Assembly: GCA_000961585.1 (NCBI GenBank)
Contig: LADN01000037.1
Location: 1 to 38,760, forward strand
DNA from: Peptococcaceae bacterium BRH_c4a
Lineage (GTDB): Bacteria > Bacillota > Desulfotomaculia > Desulfotomaculales > Desulfocucumaceae
DNA length: 38,760 bases
Direction of reading: 5' to 3'
In this document: positions 1-33,318 of the stretch, piece by piece
Layout of the letters: the number at the start of each line of letters is the position of its first letter
Numbering within the stretch: position 1 is the first letter of the stretch
Notes under the pieces: model-generated
The model's database searches: none
Told to the model about the DNA's origin: nothing
The model's input: the letters and a program-made list of their open reading frames with translations, nothing else
Translations under genes and position numbers: made by a program

Positions 1-2893
1 GGCGATGCCGGCGCGGTTGCCGGTGGCGGCGGCGGCGATGCCGGCGCAGTAGGTGCCGTGGCCGTGGTCGTCTTCCGGGTGGCTGTCGTCGTTGACGAAG
101 TCGTAACCGGGGATGAGTTTGGCCGCCAGGTCGGGATGGTTTAAGTCGCAGCCGCTGTCGATGACGGCGATGGTGATCTCCCGGCTGCCTTTTTCAATGT
201 CCCAGGCCCGGGGGGCTTTGATGTCGGCGCCGGGGGCGCCGCCGGTCTGGCCGGTGTTGGAAAGGCCCCACTGTTTGTCGAAGGCGGGGTCGTTGGGAAT
301 AAGCAGGGTTTCGAGCAGGTAGTTGGGCTCGGCGTATTCTACGGCGGGCTCCTGCCGATACTGCTGCGCTGTTTTTTCGACTGTTCCGCCGTCTGGAATC
401 TGCAGGCGGTAGACGCCGATTTGCGGAAGTTTTTTGCTTTTTCCGATACCGTGTTTCCGGTTTATTTCGTCGATGGTGGCCGTGTCTGTGCCGGCTTTGA
501 ATTTTACCAGCAGTTCTTTTTCTTTGAACTGTGGTTTGACGGGTCTGGCCGGTGCGGCGGTTTGTTCTTTTTTCTTTTCCCAGGCGTTGTTTTGCGCAAC
601 GGTTATTTTTTGCAGGCGGTTTTCCTGGTCGTAGGCATAGGTGAAATGGGTTTTGCCGGGCAACTCCCAGATGTCCGGCAGGTTTTTTTCGTCTTCCGGG
701 CCGCTGAATGAGGGTTTTTGCTGGAATCTGGTCATGGCGGTACGGTTGCCGGCGTTGTCGTAGGTGTAGCTGTTTGTGTGGTGAATCCTGCCGGAGGAGC
801 CTCCTTTGCGCATGGTTTCGGAGGTCAGCCGGTTTAATGGATCGTATGTGTACTGAATATGATCGCCGTCGGCTGAAGTTATGGCTGTTCTTATGCCGGC
901 TGCGTCGTATTGGTAATTATACGAAGAGATGACCTCCTGAGCATTCACTCTCTCGTTGACCAGCTTTAAGAGCCGGTTCAGGTTGTCGAAGGCATAGGTG
1001 GTTCTGGTGTTGTTGGGATAAGTCGCGGACACCAGATTGGATAATTTATCGTAGGCGTAACTTGTGGCTTTGCCCTGCGGGTCGGTGACTTTTGTCAGGC
1101 GGTTTAGCGAGTCGTATTCATAAAGGGTTACGCTGCCGTCCTGGTCGGTCATTTTGGTGCGGTTTCCGGACGCGTCATATTCGTAGCTGATGGTGTCGGT
1201 GCCCGCCGGTCCGTTTTCTTTTATGAGGCGGCTCAACTGGTCATACTGGTAAGTGGTGGTCCCCCGGTCGTCGCTCATGGCGGTGCGCCTGCCGGTGGTG
1301 TCGTACTGGTAGGAAACACTGCTTCTGTCGGGATAGGTTACGCTCACCAGACGGTCGTTTTCATCATATGCATACCGGATGGTGTTGCCGCCCGCGTCGG
1401 TTGTGGCGGTCCGGTTGCCGGCGGGGTCGTATGCCATGGTTGTCGTGTGGTCCAGGGGACTGATGACTTCGATAAGCCGGTTGAGCTGGTCATAGTTGTA
1501 GGTGGTCCGGTTGTAATTGGCGTCGGTGAAGCCGACCCGGTTGCCTTCGGTGTCGTAGCTGTAAACGGTGGTATGACCAAGGGGGTCGGTGACACCCGCC
1601 AACCTGTTGACGCTGTCGAAGGTGTAACTGGTGGTGGTGCCCCGGGGATCGGTGAGGGCGTCGAGGTTACCCGCGGCGTCGTATTGATAGGAAACGGTGT
1701 TGCCGCCGGGACCGGTTACCCGCAGGGGCCGGTTCACGGCGTCGTATGCTATGGAGGTGGTGTTGCCCAGGGCGTCGGTGACGGCCGTGCAGTTGCCTGC
1801 GGTGTCGTAAGCAAATTGGGTCCGGTTGAGTATGGGATCGATGACGGCGGCAAGGTTGCCGGGGGCATCGTACTCACAGGTGGTGATGCTGCCTTTGGGA
1901 TCTGTGGCGCTGATTGGATTGCCGCTGCTGTCATAAGCGTAGGAACAGTTATTTCCTGCTGCGTCGATAGCTTTGATGAGGTTGCCCCGGCTGTCGTATT
2001 CGTAAGTTGTCTGGTGACTCAAGGGGTCGGTGATGCCGGTGCACAGGTTGTATATGGGTTCGTAGGTGAAGCTGGTGCTGTTGCCCTGCGGGTCGGTGAG
2101 ACCGGTGAGGTTGCCCCGGTCGTCGTAGGTCATGACGGTGGCGTGGCCGTTCCGGTCGGTGAAGCGGGTTTTGTTTAGATCGCTGTCCCATTGTGATTCC
2201 TGACTGTGATTATCGGCGTCCTCGATGCGGGTGATGACCCTGGTGTCGCCGATGACGGTATGGTAATAGGTGGTGGTATGTCCTTTGGAATTGGTGGTGA
2301 CGGTTTTCCGGTTATCCGGATCGTACTTGAGACTGATGCTGTTGTTGTCGCCGTCATAGGAAAATTTCGTGGCGCGGCCTTTTGTATCGTAGGTGAAGTT
2401 GCGCTTGTTGCCTTTCGGGTCGGTGACCGTCAGAAGCTGGTGCTGGTGGGTAAAGTTCTTGTATTCGTATGTGGCGGTGTTGCCGGCCGGGTCGGTGACG
2501 GTTTTCAGGTTGTTGTTACCGTCATAGGCGTAACTGATTGAGCGGTCGAGCGAACCGGTGACACTCAAGATCCGATCCTGGGAGTCGTATGTGAAGGTGA
2601 TCTGGCGGCCGGAGGCGTTTGTGACTGTGTCAAGCCTTTCCCCGTTGTAGGAGAGGGTAATCTGGTTGCCGTTTTGATCTTCTATGTGACTCAGTTTCCC
2701 TGCGGTGTTAAACTGGCTGATCACGCCGTGCTTGTCCCGCAGGGTGAAGGTTCCGTCGGCGCTTTTGGTCAGGGTGGAGCGGTTGCCCGCCGGAGTCTGG
2801 TAAGTGCCGTCGGGGTTGCGGGTGAAGATTGCCAGTGCCCCGTATCCGTCAAATTCCCGCACGGTAGCGCCTTTGTCTACGAGGTGGGTGTTG
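1..2893 (-). CDS. Rhs/YD-repeat protein, downstream part, with S8 subtilisin-like protease domain (partial, frame-shifted)
   Basis: This is the continuation, in a different frame, of the gene that starts at 4006. I translated the minus strand from 2892 to 1 and found no stop. It begins with the end of the Rhs N-terminal (DUF6531-like) domain, then about 25 YD repeats of roughly 21 residues, such as YDPAGNRTA, YDQLNRLIEV and YDSLNRLTKVTD, covering about 2500-600. A charged, Pro/Ala-rich linker (about 600-520) follows, then a protease propeptide with the signatures ELLVKFKAGTD and VEYAEPNYLLE. Last is an S8 peptidase domain with the Asp motif IAVIDSGCDLNHPDL (about 165-125) and the His motif DDHGHGTYCAG (about 68-36). 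The catalytic Ser would lie beyond the left edge. The usual Rhs C-terminal core motif before a toxin tip was not seen. The protein is presumably exported and self-processed; that is inference. The frame break may be a real mutation or a sequence error. Confidence 0.85.
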
Positions 2894-4006
2894 TTAGCTG
2901 TGGGTCCAGCCGAAGCCGAAGGGGCCCTGGTTTTCGAACTTGGAATTATAGGTCCTGGTGAACTGGAGGGGAATGCCTTTGCCGGGAATAATCAGGTCTT
3001 CAAAAACGCTGAACACGTTGCCGGTGGTGACGTTAATGGGGTCGCTGGCCACGGTGGCGTTTGGGTCGGCGGTCGGGCCGTTATTCACCTGTTCCGGGTC
3101 GGAAGGCGCAGGGGGTTCTTCTTCTTTGGGCGGTTCTGTCCACCAGAACTGGGCGGCCATGAAGGAGGCGCCTTCGATGGCCAGAGGTTCGGTTAGGGTG
3201 GTGACGCTGCCACCGGTGATGTTGATTAAGGCTGATTCGGTACGGGCGTATGAAATGATGCCGTTCTGGTCGGTGGTCAGGGTGATGGTTTCGGTGTAGT
3301 TGTTATGGCCGGGCAGACGGAAGGTGGCGGAAAGCTGTTTGCCGGCCACCGGGTTGCCGGTTGAATCGAGAAGCCGGGCTTTCAAGCTTAAGCTGAAGGT
3401 GTTCCGGTACTGCCGGGAGTTTTCGATGCAGGATGAGATGTTCGCGTCGGCTATATAGTCAACCAGCGGCGGTAAGGATAAGGCGAGATCTGCGGCGGTG
3501 TTTAAGTTTTTGCTTAAGGCGGCAACCGGTACCGGCAGAATTGCCGGGGTCCCTTTGTTTTCTCTGCCGTTTAAGGTGAAAGTGTACTCCAGCGGTTTGA
3601 TCTGCCAGGTATTCGCTTCGGAGAGGGTATGGTCAGGGGTGACGATAAGGGTTTCGGTGAGGTTAACGCTGTATTTGCCGGGTGTGGTCTCGGACAACCG
3701 GCCGGTGTATCCGATGGTTGGCACGGTAAAGTCTATCGCTGCGCCGGAGAGTACCTCTGTTTCGGTTTTCAAGGGGTAAATGCTGAGGTAAGCTTCACTC
3801 CGGACCGTTACCTCGTTGTTTTCCCCGGTAACGGAGAAGCCGGAGAGTTTTCCCTGCAGCACCAGGGAGTCGTCGGGAATGATGAGGGTGCGCGGGCTGT
3901 TTTCTCCCGGCGACAGTTCGCACCAGGCCACACTGCCCACCAGGAGCAGGAAGACCAGGACGGCTACGTTTACCATTACCAGTACTGTTTTCTTTGAACC
4001 TATCAT
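2894..4006 (-). CDS. Secreted Rhs-type protein, N-terminal part (ends at frameshift)
   Basis: The start is ATG at 4006, chosen because GGAGGG lies six bases upstream (4012-4017); an upstream ATG at 4042 lacks such a site. Residues 1-30 form a signal peptide: MIGSKK, then a long hydrophobic stretch ending near SVAWC. I see no proper lipobox. Residues about 40-270 are extracellular-type beta-rich sequence, including a segment that resembles bacterial Ig-like domains (GNPVAGKQLSATF). A Pro/Glu linker (PPKEEEPPAPSDPEQ) precedes the Rhs N-terminal domain (DPINVTTGNVF, LQFTRTYNS, GPFGFGWTHS). The reading frame then hits TAA at 2894-2896, where family members continue WTHSYNTHL. Dropping one A restores exactly that sequence in the next frame, so this ORF and the region 1-2893 were one gene. 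A c-di-GMP riboswitch lies in its leader. Confidence 0.88.
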   Translation of the reverse strand: MIGSKKTVLVMVNVAVLVFLLLVGSVAWCELSPGENSPRTLIIPDDSLVLQGKLSGFSVTGENNEVTVRSEAYLSIYPLKTETEVLSGAAIDFTVPTIGYTGRLSETTPGKYSVNLTETLIVTPDHTLSEANTWQIKPLEYTFTLNGRENKGTPAILPVPVAALSKNLNTAADLALSLPPLVDYIADANISSCIENSRQYRNTFSLSLKARLLDSTGNPVAGKQLSATFRLPGHNNYTETITLTTDQNGIISYARTESALINITGGSVTTLTEPLAIEGASFMAAQFWWTEPPKEEEPPAPSDPEQVNNGPTADPNATVASDPINVTTGNVFSVFEDLIIPGKGIPLQFTRTYNSKFENQGPFGFGWTHS

Positions 4007-4047
4007 TTTTTCCCTCCAACTTTTCGTTTTTTCCCCAGGCAAACGAC

Positions 4048-4080
4048 AAAAAGCCTGCCACCGGTTTAACCGTAGCAGAC
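4048..4080 (-). terminator. Intrinsic terminator in the riboswitch leader
   Basis: On the minus strand an RNA stem of about 12 pairs (GTCTGCTA CGGT / ACCG G TGGCAGGC, one bulged G, loop TAA) is followed at once by TTTTT. It lies between the c-di-GMP aptamer and the ATG at 4006, as expected for a riboswitch expression platform. The segment GTAGCACAGAC near 4121-4131, just after the aptamer, can pair with the 5' arm of this stem (GTCTGCTAC) with a two-base bulge, so it is a possible antiterminator. Confidence 0.8.
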
Positions 4081-4134
4081 TTTCTTTTCCCCTTTTGCTG
4101 TTAAAACTCCGTTTTCTGTCGCGTCTGTGCTACT

Positions 4135-4222
4135 TTATCAACGGCAACCCGGCTGTCCTGGCAAGTGTCGCTTTAGACCCGTAGCTTTGCGTCCCTGCCT
4201 TTCGGCAGGTTTGCCTTTTTCA
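4135..4222 (-). promoter_or_regulatory. Cyclic-di-GMP-I (GEMM-I) riboswitch aptamer
   Basis: Read on the minus strand, this has the conserved GEMM-I parts in order: GGCAAACC, a P2 stem CTGCC/GGCAG capped by a GAAA tetraloop, the core GGGACGCAAAGC, then TACGGGTCTAAAG, and a second arm ending CAGCCGGGTTGCC. GGCAA and TTGCC close P1. The family binds cyclic di-GMP and often controls motility, adhesion and exported proteins. It is 130 bases upstream of the Rhs/S8 gene start, with a terminator between. Whether ligand turns the gene on or off cannot be decided from sequence alone. Confidence 0.93.
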
Positions 4223-4232
4223 TTTTGCTGAT

Positions 4233-4261
4233 ATTTTATCCTTTGCTGGGTTTTTTTGCAA
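4233..4261 (-). promoter_or_regulatory. SigA-type promoter for the riboswitch/Rhs gene
   Basis: On the minus strand TTGCAA (4261-4256) and TAAAAT (4238-4233) are separated by 17 bases. The predicted transcript starts just before the GEMM-I aptamer. Confidence 0.65.
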
Positions 4262-4299: not shown

Positions 4300-4329
4300 T
4301 TGACATGAAAGCAGGTAATAGGGTACAAT
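4300..4329 (+). promoter_or_regulatory. SigA-type promoter for the Yip1-like gene
   Basis: TTGACA at 4300-4305 and TACAAT at 4324-4329, with an 18-base spacer. It lies about 40 bases upstream of the likely GTG start of the divergent membrane-protein gene. Confidence 0.65.
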
Positions 4330-4371
4330 TTGACCGGTTTATATCCGGAATATACTGGTAGAAAGGTGTGT

Positions 4372-5211
4372 GTGCGGCCGGTGCGAAGAGGGGAGGGGTC
4401 CGGGGTTAAGGAGAATGTTTCTGCGGCAAAGCTCTTTGTTTTGCTTCTGGTCAGGCCTTCCGCCGGCGTCAACCGGATTCTGCGGGAGAAACCCGGGTTT
4501 AAAGGTATCGTGTTTTTTCTGCTGGGGATCGGTACGCTGCGGGGAATGGCGGAAGGGGTCTGGATTCTTTCCATGCAGGGGCGACTCGGCCAGGTTTTGA
4601 GCGCTCCACCGCTGCTCAAGGCATACCTGCTGCAGGGACTGCCTTTTGTACTGTCCAATGTTACCACTGCTTACGTGAGATGGGCGGCTTTCGCCGTCGT
4701 GCCTTTCCTGTGCGGGGTGTTTTTCGGCGGCAGGGGAAGATTTGAGGATTTTTTAAGGATTTACGGTGTTGCGCTGGGCATTTTTCTGGTTACCATTATG
4801 CCCAACTTCGCCTATCTTTTTGTGAAGCTGCCGGTAATCCGGTTTAATGTTTCGGAGGTGTACAACCCGACCATCGGGATCGGGCAGGTGCTCACTTCCT
4901 GCTGGCTGGTTTATGTTTCTTACCGGGCGGTTATGGTTGTTCACAAACTGCCCCGGTTCGAGTCGTTTTTTGCCGGGTTGCTGGTGCCGCTGCTCAATAT
5001 CGGGATTCTGGTGCTGGGGGCGGCGGTTGTGTTCAATTTCCCGTCTCTGGCGCTCTTCTCTCAGAAGAAGGTGTTCAGCTTGTCTACTGCTGGTTTTACA
5101 GTGGCTACACTGATGGTTGTTCCCGTTTTTCTCTGGCTGGGATACGCTGTTGATAAAAGGATACACGTAAGGCTGGCTGGATCGAAAGAAACTTCTCACA
5201 GCAACAGATGA
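4372..5211 (+). CDS. Yip1-domain-like integral membrane protein
   Basis: A 279-residue protein rich in hydrophobic segments, with about five predicted membrane spans (for example GIVFFLLGIGTL, AAFAVVPFLCGVFF, YGVALGIFLVTIM, GLLVPLLNIGILVLGAAVV and LMVVPVFLWLGYAV). The opening pattern LVRPSAGVNRILREKPG resembles the start of the Yip1 family (RP followed by an IL-x-EKP motif). The function of bacterial Yip1 proteins is poorly known, so none is assigned. The exact start is unsure: reading frame is open upstream, but the promoter -10 box sits at 4324-4329, so a GTG at 4372 (AGAAAGG at 4361-4366) or 4366 is preferred. It is transcribed away from the Rhs/S8 gene and no partner gene is visible. Confidence 0.7.
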   Translation: MRPVRRGEGSGVKENVSAAKLFVLLLVRPSAGVNRILREKPGFKGIVFFLLGIGTLRGMAEGVWILSMQGRLGQVLSAPPLLKAYLLQGLPFVLSNVTTAYVRWAAFAVVPFLCGVFFGGRGRFEDFLRIYGVALGIFLVTIMPNFAYLFVKLPVIRFNVSEVYNPTIGIGQVLTSCWLVYVSYRAVMVVHKLPRFESFFAGLLVPLLNIGILVLGAAVVFNFPSLALFSQKKVFSLSTAGFTVATLMVVPVFLWLGYAVDKRIHVRLAGSKETSHSNR

Positions 5212-13140: not shown

Positions 13141-14238
13141 TCACTGATTCGAAATATATCCCTCAACAAGTATGTCATCCCCAATCCTGGTCACCCTTAC
13201 CCTCTCCAGCAGTGTTGCCCCGGCAACAGTTTCGGAACCCTGACCTCCCAGAGGGCCGGGGGCCTCCACCCCGCCGATGAGCTTGGGGGCTATAAACCAT
13301 TCCACCTTGTCCACACCGCCGGAAGATATGGCCGAGGCATGGACCTGCCCGCCCCCCTCTATGAGCACGCTGGTTATCCCTCTGCGGGCCAGCTCGGTAA
13401 ATACCGCCTTCATGTCCACCCTCCCCTCACTTTCCGGGAGGGCTAACACCTCAGCGCCAGCCTTCTTTAATAACCCAACCCTTTCCTCCGGGGCCTTGGT
13501 GGTGGTAATTATTAATACAGGGGCCTCCGAAGAGCTGTTAATCACCACTGATCCCGGAGGTGTCCTGGCCTGGCTGTCCAGCACCACCCTGACCGGGTCC
13601 CTGCCTCCCTCCGGAAGCCTGGTGGTTAGCGAGGGATTATCGGCCAAAACAGTGTTCACTCCCACCATAATGGCATCATACCTATCCCGGAGCCGGTGTC
13701 CATACTCCCTTGCCTTTGGACCTGTGATCCATCTGGAGTCCCCGGTCCGGGTGGCGATCTTTCCGTCCAGGCTTACGGCGGCCTTTAGCACCACAAAGGG
13801 CTTACCGGTGGCGATATATTTTATGAATACCTCGTTAAGCCTGCTGGCCTCCTCCTCCATGACTCCCCAGACAACCTCCAGCCCGGCCTGCCTCAGCCTT
13901 GCAAATCCCTTGCCGGCCACCAGGGGATTGGGGTCGGTCATGGCGGCCACCACCCTGGCCACTCCGGCATTTATTACGGCCTCGGTGCACGGGCCAGTCC
14001 TGCCGTGATGGCAGCAGGGCTCCAGGGTGACATAGAGGGTTGATCCCCCGGCCCCATCCCCGGCATCCCTTAAGGCCATAACCTCGGCGTGGGGAGTTCC
14101 CGCCCCGGCGTGAAATCCCCGGCCCACAACCTTGCCTTCCTTCACCAGCACCGCCCCCACCATGGGATTGGGGCTGGTGCGGCCAATGGCTGTGGCGGCC
14201 AAATCCAGAGCCATTTTCATATACTTTGTGTCCTCCAA
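13141..14238 (-). CDS. ribD: Bifunctional diaminohydroxyphosphoribosylaminopyrimidine deaminase / 5-amino-6-(5-phosphoribosylamino)uracil reductase
   Basis: RibD (about 365 residues) performs the deaminase and reductase steps of riboflavin synthesis. The deaminase half has TSPNPMVGAVLV, the zinc site GFHAGAGTPHAEVMAL, and TLYVTLEPCCHHGRTGPC. The reductase half has VLKAAVSLDGKIATRTGDSR, IMVGVNTVLADNPSLTTR and the cofactor region VLIEGGGQVHASA. The likely start is TTG at 14238, because GGAGGTGG lies just upstream; a longer frame would run into the leader terminator. It is the first gene of the operon and directly follows the FMN riboswitch. Confidence 0.95.
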   Translation of the reverse strand: MEDTKYMKMALDLAATAIGRTSPNPMVGAVLVKEGKVVGRGFHAGAGTPHAEVMALRDAGDGAGGSTLYVTLEPCCHHGRTGPCTEAVINAGVARVVAAMTDPNPLVAGKGFARLRQAGLEVVWGVMEEEASRLNEVFIKYIATGKPFVVLKAAVSLDGKIATRTGDSRWITGPKAREYGHRLRDRYDAIMVGVNTVLADNPSLTTRLPEGGRDPVRVVLDSQARTPPGSVVINSSSEAPVLIITTTKAPEERVGLLKKAGAEVLALPESEGRVDMKAVFTELARRGITSVLIEGGGQVHASAISSGGVDKVEWFIAPKLIGGVEAPGPLGGQGSETVAGATLLERVRVTRIGDDILVEGYISNQ

Positions 14239-14250
14239 GTTCCACCTCCA

Positions 14251-14285
14251 AAAAACAACAAAACCCCAGGAAATATACCCCGGGG
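14251..14285 (-). terminator. Intrinsic terminator of the FMN riboswitch
   Basis: On the minus strand CCCCGGG and CCTGGGG pair (one G-T) around a short A/T loop and are followed by TTTTGTTGTTTTTT. It sits between the FMN aptamer and the ribD start, so it is the likely expression platform: FMN binding should favour termination. Confidence 0.8.
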
Positions 14286-14340
14286 AATGATCACACAAAA
14301 GGATATCCATTACGTCTCACGACGCAGATAACCATACGTA

Positions 14341-14500
14341 ATCCACCTTCTACCATCCAGACTTTAAGGGTCCTGTAATGTAAAAGACCCGTTAACTGTC
14401 GGCCCCGGCTTTCCACCGGATCAACCCTTGCGGGCTCGCGGGCTCGGCCACAAATTGCGCCACACCGCCGGTAGGGAATCCCACCCGTCCCCGAAGGCAA
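14341..14500 (-). promoter_or_regulatory. FMN riboswitch (RFN element)
   Basis: The minus strand shows the RFN box in order: GCCTTCGGGGACGGGTGGGA, ATTCCCTACCGGCGGT, GAGCCCGCGAGCC, TGATCCGGTGGAAAGCCGG, GGCCGACAGTTAACGGGTC and finally GTCTGGATGGTAGAAGGT. The first and last parts pair as P1. The family senses flavin mononucleotide and shuts off riboflavin operons. The stretch 14239-14562 holds only this element, its terminator and the promoter. Confidence 0.97.
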
Positions 14501-14512
14501 TTTTTTTTATTT

Positions 14513-32842: not shown

Positions 32843-32894
32843 AATTCATCTCCGTCAGCTGTAAGCTTTTTCATCGCTTAGGAAAGTATATGAC

Positions 32895-32942
32895 GCATTA
32901 AAGCATTAAAGCGCTGAAGCACTGAAGCACCAAAGCATTTTT
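32895..32942. repeat. Degenerate 8-bp tandem repeat, six units
   Basis: GCATTAAA, GCATTAAA, GCGCTGAA, GCACTGAA, GCACCAAA and GCATTTTT follow without gaps, each starting GC and mostly ending in AA. Confidence 0.75.
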
Positions 32943-33009
32943 ATGTAGCCCAGAGTTTTTCTGGGGTCGCTCCGGGGTCACTTGAGGGTCGCTGCATTGT
33001 CGCTAATGG

Positions 33010-33230
33010 GTAGGTGGAGCGATTTGAGTCCGGCCTACATAACCTCCTGCTGCAACTGTCTCTAAACTCGGTCGCCAACGGAATGCCGACCGCCTCCAAC
33101 GCCGCATCCTTGCGTCGATTCCGGCTTCCGGCTGCGTCCTGCAGCCGGCTCGGCATTCCGTAGGCTCGGTCGTTAAGAGACAGTAGCAGCCTCCGGTACA
33201 TTCCGCACGGACTCAAATCACTCCCCCTCA
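33010..33230. repeat. Large imperfect palindrome flanked by 20-bp direct repeats
   Basis: The outer arms GGTGGAGCGATTTGAGTCCG (33013-33032) and CGGACTCAAATCACTCCCC (33208-33226) are inverted copies with few mismatches. Further in, CTGCTGCAACTGTCTCTAAA and the complement of TTAAGAGACAGTAGCAG pair, as do CTCGGTCG and CGGAATGCC with their partners. The centre is about 55 bases. GGGGTC(A/T)CTTGAGGGTCGCT occurs at 32974-32993 and again at 33245-33264 with one mismatch, as if bracketing the element. It may be a MITE or a structured RNA. Confidence 0.7.
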
Positions 33231-33284
33231 CTGCATGTCGCTGTGGGGTCTCTTGAGGGTCGCTTTTAAGGCTGCCTGTCACCA

Positions 33285-33318
33285 TTCTGGCTTCTGGCTT
33301 CTGGCTTCTGGCTTCTGG
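33285..33318. repeat. Heptamer tandem repeat TTCTGGC, nearly five copies
   Basis: Four perfect TTCTGGC units and a final TTCTGG run from 33285 to 33318. It has the same period as the repeat at 19173 but an unrelated sequence. Confidence 0.9.

What the first reader, a model, noticed from the sequence alone, without database searches (positions are those of the whole stretch)
4048..4261. c-di-GMP-I riboswitch with terminator controlling the Rhs/protease gene
Promoter, GEMM-I aptamer, possible antiterminator (GTAGCACAGAC, about 4121-4131), intrinsic terminator and a good ribosome binding site follow in the right order within 260 bases. This ties a giant exported protease-bearing protein to the sessile/motile switch. 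It makes a physiological role in surface life more likely than random toxin cargo.
Basis: partly seen in the sequence, partly recalled or inferred. Interest (0 to 1): 0.75.

Follow-up and report, generated by a model that had tools for sequence, protein, structure and literature searches.

The report
c-di-GMP riboswitch before Rhs protein gene
A known type of RNA sensor for the bacterial signal c-di-GMP sits in front of a large, here interrupted, exported Rhs gene; the same pairing recurs in related bacteria, so a biofilm signal probably controls contact-type weapons or surface proteins there.

Summary
On the minus strand, 4225-4140 is a class I c-di-GMP (GEMM-I) aptamer: RF01051 88.6 bits against a cut-off of 35. 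A sigma-70-like promoter, a strong intrinsic terminator (4085-4048), GGAGGG and ATG 4006 complete the leader. Rfam's clan filter reports the variant model c-di-GMP-I-GGC, but the nucleotides that touch the ligand are canonical (G20, A47, C92).

The gene is an exported Rhs protein. Its frame is interrupted inside DUF6531 in this assembly, so the "giant protease-bearing protein" is split. The subtilase lies in the second frame, which runs off the contig.

The link is not a coincidence. In 22 genomes of the order that carry DUF6531, 9 of 42 DUF6531 loci have this riboswitch upstream on the same strand; about 0.1-0.2 are expected and control arrangements give 0. Three families share a riboswitch-SLH-Rhs operon. 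Sibling Rhs loci carry repeated C-terminal cassettes, as polymorphic toxins do, so "surface life" and "toxin" are not alternatives.

Polarity is unsettled. Folding favours ON here (weakly) and OFF for sibling loci C36 (strong) and C22. Known riboswitch class, known gene class; the link was not found in the paper searches made.

The parts
4233..4261 (-). sigma-70-like promoter TTGCAA-17 nt-TAAAAT; predicted start of transcription near 4226 (inferred)
   Evidence: consensus scan only
4140..4225 (-). class I c-di-GMP riboswitch aptamer (P1, P2, P3); G20, A47, C92 canonical
4176..4186 (-). 5' strand of aptamer stem P3; its GCUAC (4185-4181) can pair with the antiterminator seed
   Evidence: complementarity to the seed 36 of 1000 shuffles as good
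4123..4133 (-). antiterminator seed GUAGCACAGAC, complementary both to P3 5' strand and to the terminator 5' arm
4048..4085 (-). intrinsic terminator hairpin with U tract
   Evidence: -21.5 kcal/mol, z -5.46
4012..4017 (-). ribosome binding site GGAGGG, 5 nt before ATG 4006
   Evidence: sequence
2894..4006 (-). first frame of the Rhs gene: 370 aa, signal-peptide-like start, own N-terminal region, first two thirds of DUF6531, then a stop
2863..2893 (-). stretch in which the reading frame changes (interruption or assembly error)
1..2862 (-). second frame: 954 aa to the contig end, 18 RHS repeats, fervidolysin-type propeptide, start of subtilase (Peptidase_S8)
   Evidence: bases 1-168 match contig C30 at 98.8%

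Best explanation
A class I c-di-GMP riboswitch that controls, by premature transcription termination, an exported Rhs (RHS repeat plus subtilase) gene of a bacterium from the Desulfotomaculum/Pelotomaculum group (name inferred). Proposed working: RNA polymerase makes the aptamer; without ligand the P3 5' strand (GCUAC) pairs with the downstream seed (GUAGC), the terminator's 5' arm stays free and transcription stops at 4048; with c-di-GMP bound, P3 is closed, the seed GUAGCACAGAC pairs with the terminator's 5' arm and transcription runs into the gene (ON switch). Shown here: aptamer, canonical contact nucleotides, terminator, the two competing complementarities, recurrence of the riboswitch-Rhs link in four families. 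Inferred: ligand identity, termination as the control step, and polarity (ON about 0.5, OFF about 0.35). The Rhs gene is read as a polymorphic-toxin or surface-antigen type locus whose expression follows the sessile/motile signal.
For: RF01051 88.6 bits; G20/A47/C92 present, as in 94 of 99 aptamers aligned. Terminator z -5.46. At the decision point (160-168 nt made) the antiterminator has probability 0.93-0.95 in the ligand-constrained ensemble and 0.15-0.24 in the free one; the seed is bound to P3 with 0.71-0.80 in the latter. 9 of 42 DUF6531 loci in 22 genomes carry the riboswitch within 3.5 kb upstream on the same strand; expected 0.11 (positions) to 0.19 (genes); 0 in control arrangements. 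Riboswitch-SLH-Rhs operon in three families, SLH proteins 44-47% identical. 12 GGDEF matches in the genome.
Against: No wet experiment. The polarity signal for this locus is weak: 20 of 300 randomised leaders are as ON-like; with the cruder measure 27 of 150; the terminator is the most stable fold of the full leader with or without the aptamer. Sibling Rhs leaders mostly lean OFF (C36 0 of 300, C22 15 of 300, others not significant), and in C. difficile the class I switches act as OFF switches (PMC6200980, passages). The gene is interrupted, so the present product may be only a 370-aa fragment. The N-terminal region has no relative beyond DUF6531 in 113 genomes of the order, so no orthologue of this exact gene supports it.
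Confidence: 0.75

Rival explanations
1. Same riboswitch but an OFF switch: without ligand the P3/P1 3' strand pairs with the terminator's loop and 3' arm (antiterminator); c-di-GMP closes P3, the terminator forms and the gene is shut in sessile cells.
For: An extended antiterminator that uses the aptamer's 3' strand exists in the model (-45.6 kcal/mol against -41.5 for aptamer plus short antiterminator; 0.41-0.50 of the free ensemble at 172 nt). The relative G001:C45 has significant complementarity of that kind (4 of 1000 shuffles). C36 and C22 lean OFF. Class I switches of C. difficile are OFF switches, one before the exported protease gene zmpI (PMC6200980, passages).
Against: In this leader that complementarity is not better than chance (196 of 1000), whereas the ON-type seed pairings are (18 and 36 of 1000); the antiterminator-strength difference points to ON.
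Confidence: 0.35
2. Relic: the riboswitch still works but the gene behind it is broken, so the switch now only makes a short transcript or a 370-aa fragment.
For: Stop inside DUF6531 and frame change; the Rhs gene at C36 is also interrupted, there by a copy of a dispersed repeat; at C85 a weak aptamer lies before an Rhs-like remnant without a long frame.
Against: The aptamer, promoter, terminator and RBS are all in good order; the RHS frame behind the break stays open for 997 codons, so the break is young or an assembly error; C22 is open for 2065 codons to the contig end.
Confidence: 0.35
3. Variant riboswitch (Rfam c-di-GMP-I-GGC) with another ligand.
For: Rfam's clan competition keeps RF03167 by E-value.
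Against: RF01051 gives the higher bit score (88.6 against 76.9); the model's variant position is G in its consensus but A here (alignment; A47 in all 99 aptamers).
Confidence: 0.05

Closest known systems
c-di-GMP-I (GEMM-I) riboswitch, RF01051
   Same: Covariance score, P1-P2-P3 layout, G20/A47/C92, transcription terminator platform.
   Different: Target is an Rhs gene; polarity unknown.
C. difficile Cdi-1-12 upstream of zmpI (exported metalloprotease), PMC6200980 (passages read)
   Same: Class I c-di-GMP riboswitch in front of a protease gene in a Clostridia-type bacterium.
   Different: There the enzyme is a stand-alone zinc metalloprotease (that it is small and secreted is recalled) and the switch is OFF; here the subtilase is embedded in an Rhs protein and folding leans ON.
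Cd1 (OFF) and pilM (ON, cGAMP) riboswitches, PMC9262584 (passages read)
   Same: Same aptamer family; opposite outputs come from how the aptamer's strands pair with the terminator.
   Different: Here a separate seed downstream of P1 mediates the exchange in the favoured model.
Rhs/YD-repeat polymorphic toxins with orphan C-terminal cassettes (family features recalled)
   Same: DUF6531, RHS repeats, Rhs-associated core, variable tips, repeated C-terminal cassettes in sibling contigs.
   Different: Subtilase with its own propeptide inside the protein; regulation by a riboswitch; tip of the window gene lies beyond the contig.

Membership tests
c-di-GMP-I riboswitch (RF01051) | covariance score above the gathering score | tested here: met
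   88.6 bits against 35
c-di-GMP-I riboswitch (RF01051) | ligand-contact nucleotides G20, A47, C92 | tested here: met
   numbering C46-A47-A48-A49-G50 and the G20A and G20A/C92U mutants seen in passages of PMC7288161; the role of C92 as base-pair partner recalled
c-di-GMP-I riboswitch (RF01051) | binds c-di-GMP and changes gene expression | not testable with these tools
   needs in-line probing or transcription assays
c-di-GMP-I riboswitch (RF01051) | expression platform (terminator) between aptamer and gene | tested here: met
c-di-GMP-I-GGC variant (RF03167) | G in place of A47 | tested here: not met
   A in the window (alignment); meaning of the name GGC recalled
Rhs polymorphic toxin | DUF6531 and RHS repeats | tested here: met
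   (DUF6531 cut by the stop)
Rhs polymorphic toxin | Rhs-associated core followed by a variable toxin tip | tested here: inconclusive
   beyond the contig end; contig C30, which overlaps window 1-168 at 98.8%, has the core at 329-416 of 575 aa and an unclassified tip
Rhs polymorphic toxin | toxic activity and a cognate immunity protein | not testable with these tools
   needs expression assays in a laboratory strain

The most novel reading that the evidence does not exclude
One genome uses c-di-GMP-type riboswitches of opposite polarity on different Rhs loci: the window's locus ON, C36 and C22 OFF, with C36 carrying A20, the change that shifts specificity toward cGAMP. The bacterium would then exchange one contact-dependent Rhs arsenal for another as it goes from swimming to sessile life, directly through RNA.
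Probability: 0.15. Interest if true: 0.75.

Novelty: new member of a known kind. Interest (0 to 1): 0.5.

Why it matters
It gives a direct, testable RNA link between the biofilm second messenger and Rhs proteins in a group of anaerobes related to Desulfotomaculum and Pelotomaculum (name inferred). The link recurs in four families of the order, and the operon riboswitch-SLH-Rhs is shared by three. If it holds, it makes the question of when such bacteria deploy contact-type Rhs proteins testable by simple transcription assays.

Tried and rejected
GGC-variant reading: rejected on the contact nucleotides. 'Chance neighbour' reading: rejected. Polarity from the minimum-energy fold alone: rejected, the terminator wins in every full-length fold. 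A first polarity measure (any pairing of the terminator 5' arm) gave nothing clear for the window and was replaced by an energy measure; both are reported. A search for named relatives by the N-terminal protein found none. Weinberg 2017 (variant riboswitches) is not in the library, so the definition of GGC is recalled. Paper searches for a c-di-GMP riboswitch before Rhs genes listed nothing on it; only listings were seen, and subscription papers are missing.

Full report
WHAT IS THERE. The window is a whole contig (G000:C77) of a 3.49-Mb draft genome in 98 contigs. On the minus strand, cmscan finds an aptamer at 4224-4139. Two models of one Rfam clan match it: RF03167 (c-di-GMP-I-GGC) with 76.9 bits and RF01051 (c-di-GMP-I) with 88.6 bits; both pass their cut-offs of 59 and 35. 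The clan filter keeps the GGC model by E-value, but the GGC consensus has G where the window has A (alignment). Aligned with 98 other aptamers, the window has G20, A47 and C92, like 94 of 99; A47 occurs in all 99, three have A20, and two are incomplete or odd at C92. The numbering agrees with C46-A47-A48-A49-G50 quoted in PMC7288161 (passages). I therefore file it as a canonical class I c-di-GMP riboswitch.

LEADER. Upstream lies TTGCAA-17-TAAAAT. Downstream come a seed GUAGCACAGAC (4133-4123), a hairpin at 4085-4048 ending in U (-21.5 kcal/mol, z -5.46, 0 of 200 shuffles), GGAGGG and ATG 4006. The simple terminator scan missed the hairpin because its stem runs into the U tract, and the aptamer alone does not fold better than its shuffles (z -0.85).

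GENE. Frame 4006-2894 encodes 370 aa: a signal-like start, an N-terminal region without relatives in 113 genomes of the order apart from DUF6531, and the first 49 of 74 positions of DUF6531. It stops there. A second frame (2862-1, 954 aa to the contig end) holds 18 RHS repeats, a fervidolysin-type propeptide and the beginning of a subtilase. The profile search reports one stop inside the DUF6531 match. So in this assembly the protease-bearing protein is split; whether by mutation or by a sequencing error cannot be told here.

SAME GENOME. There are five distinct riboswitch places (six matches; C41 repeats the start of C36). They precede: this gene; a second Rhs gene (C36, interrupted; A20 aptamer); a third, open Rhs gene with a complete subtilase (C22, 2065 aa to the contig end); a PAS/GAF/HD_5 protein of HD-GYP type (C37); and, behind a weak aptamer of 55.9 bits, an Rhs-like remnant (C85, seen by eye; no long frame). 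The genome has 12 GGDEF matches.

RELATIVES. RF01051 matches occur in 52 of 60 relatives and in 7 of 8 genomes of the family. Of 39 family loci read downstream (own genome included), 6 lead into Rhs genes (one of the 39 had no downstream DNA). Of 60 loci sampled by score from the rest of the order, 1 does (several had under 1 kb downstream); by eye many of the others resemble HD-GYP, chemoreceptor and type IV pilus genes, but they were not scanned with profiles. The reverse count is the fair test: 42 DUF6531 loci in 22 of 113 genomes of the order, 136 riboswitches in those 22 genomes (one truncated repeat left out). Nine DUF6531 loci have a riboswitch within 3.5 kb upstream on the same strand; 0.11 are expected by position and 0.19 under a gene-based estimate; arrangements on the wrong strand or side give 0. 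The other 33 loci have none, so the link is frequent, not general. The nine lie in seven genomes of four families. Three of them (G002, G034, G063, in three families) are operons of an SLH protein followed by an Rhs protein (SLH domains by profile in G002 and G034; G063 by similarity), these proteins being 44-47% identical.

WHAT KIND OF RHS. In the sibling contigs the 3' parts of Rhs genes recur several times with different ends (C30: 949 bases at 90% and 499 bases at 99.6%; C31: 569 bases at 99.5%; C36 and C96 likewise), beside small frames. C30 has the Rhs-associated core at 329-416 of a 575-aa frame and an unclassified tip; the second C36 frame ends in a weak cell-wall-hydrolase match, 25.6 bits against a cut-off of 27. 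This is the anatomy of polymorphic toxins with orphan cassettes (recalled).

HOW IT MAY WORK. With the aptamer held in its ligand-bound form, prefixes of 160-168 nt pair the seed with the terminator's 5' arm at 0.93-0.95; in the free ensemble this is 0.15-0.24 and the seed pairs with P3 at 0.71-0.80. Both complementarities of the seed are better than shuffles (18 and 36 of 1000). This favours an ON switch. The energy measure gives -2.4 kcal/mol toward ON, reached by 20 of 300 randomised leaders; the cruder measure is not significant (27 of 150). Other Rhs leaders lean OFF: C36 +9.6 (0 of 300), C22 +4.8 (15 of 300); G002:C23 +2.7 (28 of 300), G034:C7 +5.1 (43 of 300), G003:C17 +2.3 (77 of 300) and G001:C45 +0.8 (109 of 300) are not clear; G063:C35 shows no difference (228 of 300) and G037:C1 +5.3 is unclear (61 of 300). 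The HD-GYP leader C37 gives +1.0 (49 of 300). In C. difficile class I switches are OFF switches, including the one before the protease gene zmpI; one class I gene rose instead (PMC6200980, passages). ON and OFF versions of one aptamer family are known (PMC9262584, passages). I give ON 0.5 and OFF 0.35.

ORIGIN. The best named matches to the window's RibD-like protein are one Actinobacteria-labelled metagenome bin (71%), then Desulfotomaculum copahuensis (69%), Peptococcaceae BRH_c4b and Pelotomaculum propionicicum; so a relative of the Desulfotomaculum/Pelotomaculum group (inferred).

VERDICT. Observation confirmed; interpretation partly supported. Known riboswitch, known protein class, a recurrent link that I did not find in the papers searched (listings only).

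Noticed in passing
window 32867-33315 (-); L321 (C36 2015-2535) and about 40 other places: A dispersed repeat of about 475 bases with 42 matching rows of 480 bits or more in this genome (only 40 of 289 candidates were scored); its core is the Rfam TwoAYGGAY RNA (window 33041-33198: found in 4 of 4 copies scanned). One copy interrupts the Rhs gene at C36.
   Followed up: partly
L013 (C36) 115-200; L320 (G037:C1): Two Rhs-associated aptamers carry A at position 20 (C36; G037:C1 read by eye), the change known to shift GEMM-I specificity toward cGAMP; A20 occurs in 3 of 99 aptamers of the aligned sample.
   Followed up: partly
window 14341-14502 (-): FMN riboswitch (88.5 bits) upstream of a RibD-like gene at 13141-14310.
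   Followed up: no
window 4300-4329 (+) and 4330-5211 (+): Strong sigma-70-like promoter (11 of 12) for a divergent Yip1-domain protein, back to back with the riboswitch promoter.
   Followed up: no
L014 442-640 (C22 leader): The platform holds a second copy of the aptamer's 3' strand (CAGGTTACCG) downstream of the aptamer, possibly a decoy strand (seen).
   Followed up: no
L101, L103, L099, L013: Arrays of repeated Rhs C-terminal pieces with different tips and small frames between them, including an ankyrin-repeat protein: candidate orphan toxin-immunity cassettes.
   Followed up: partly
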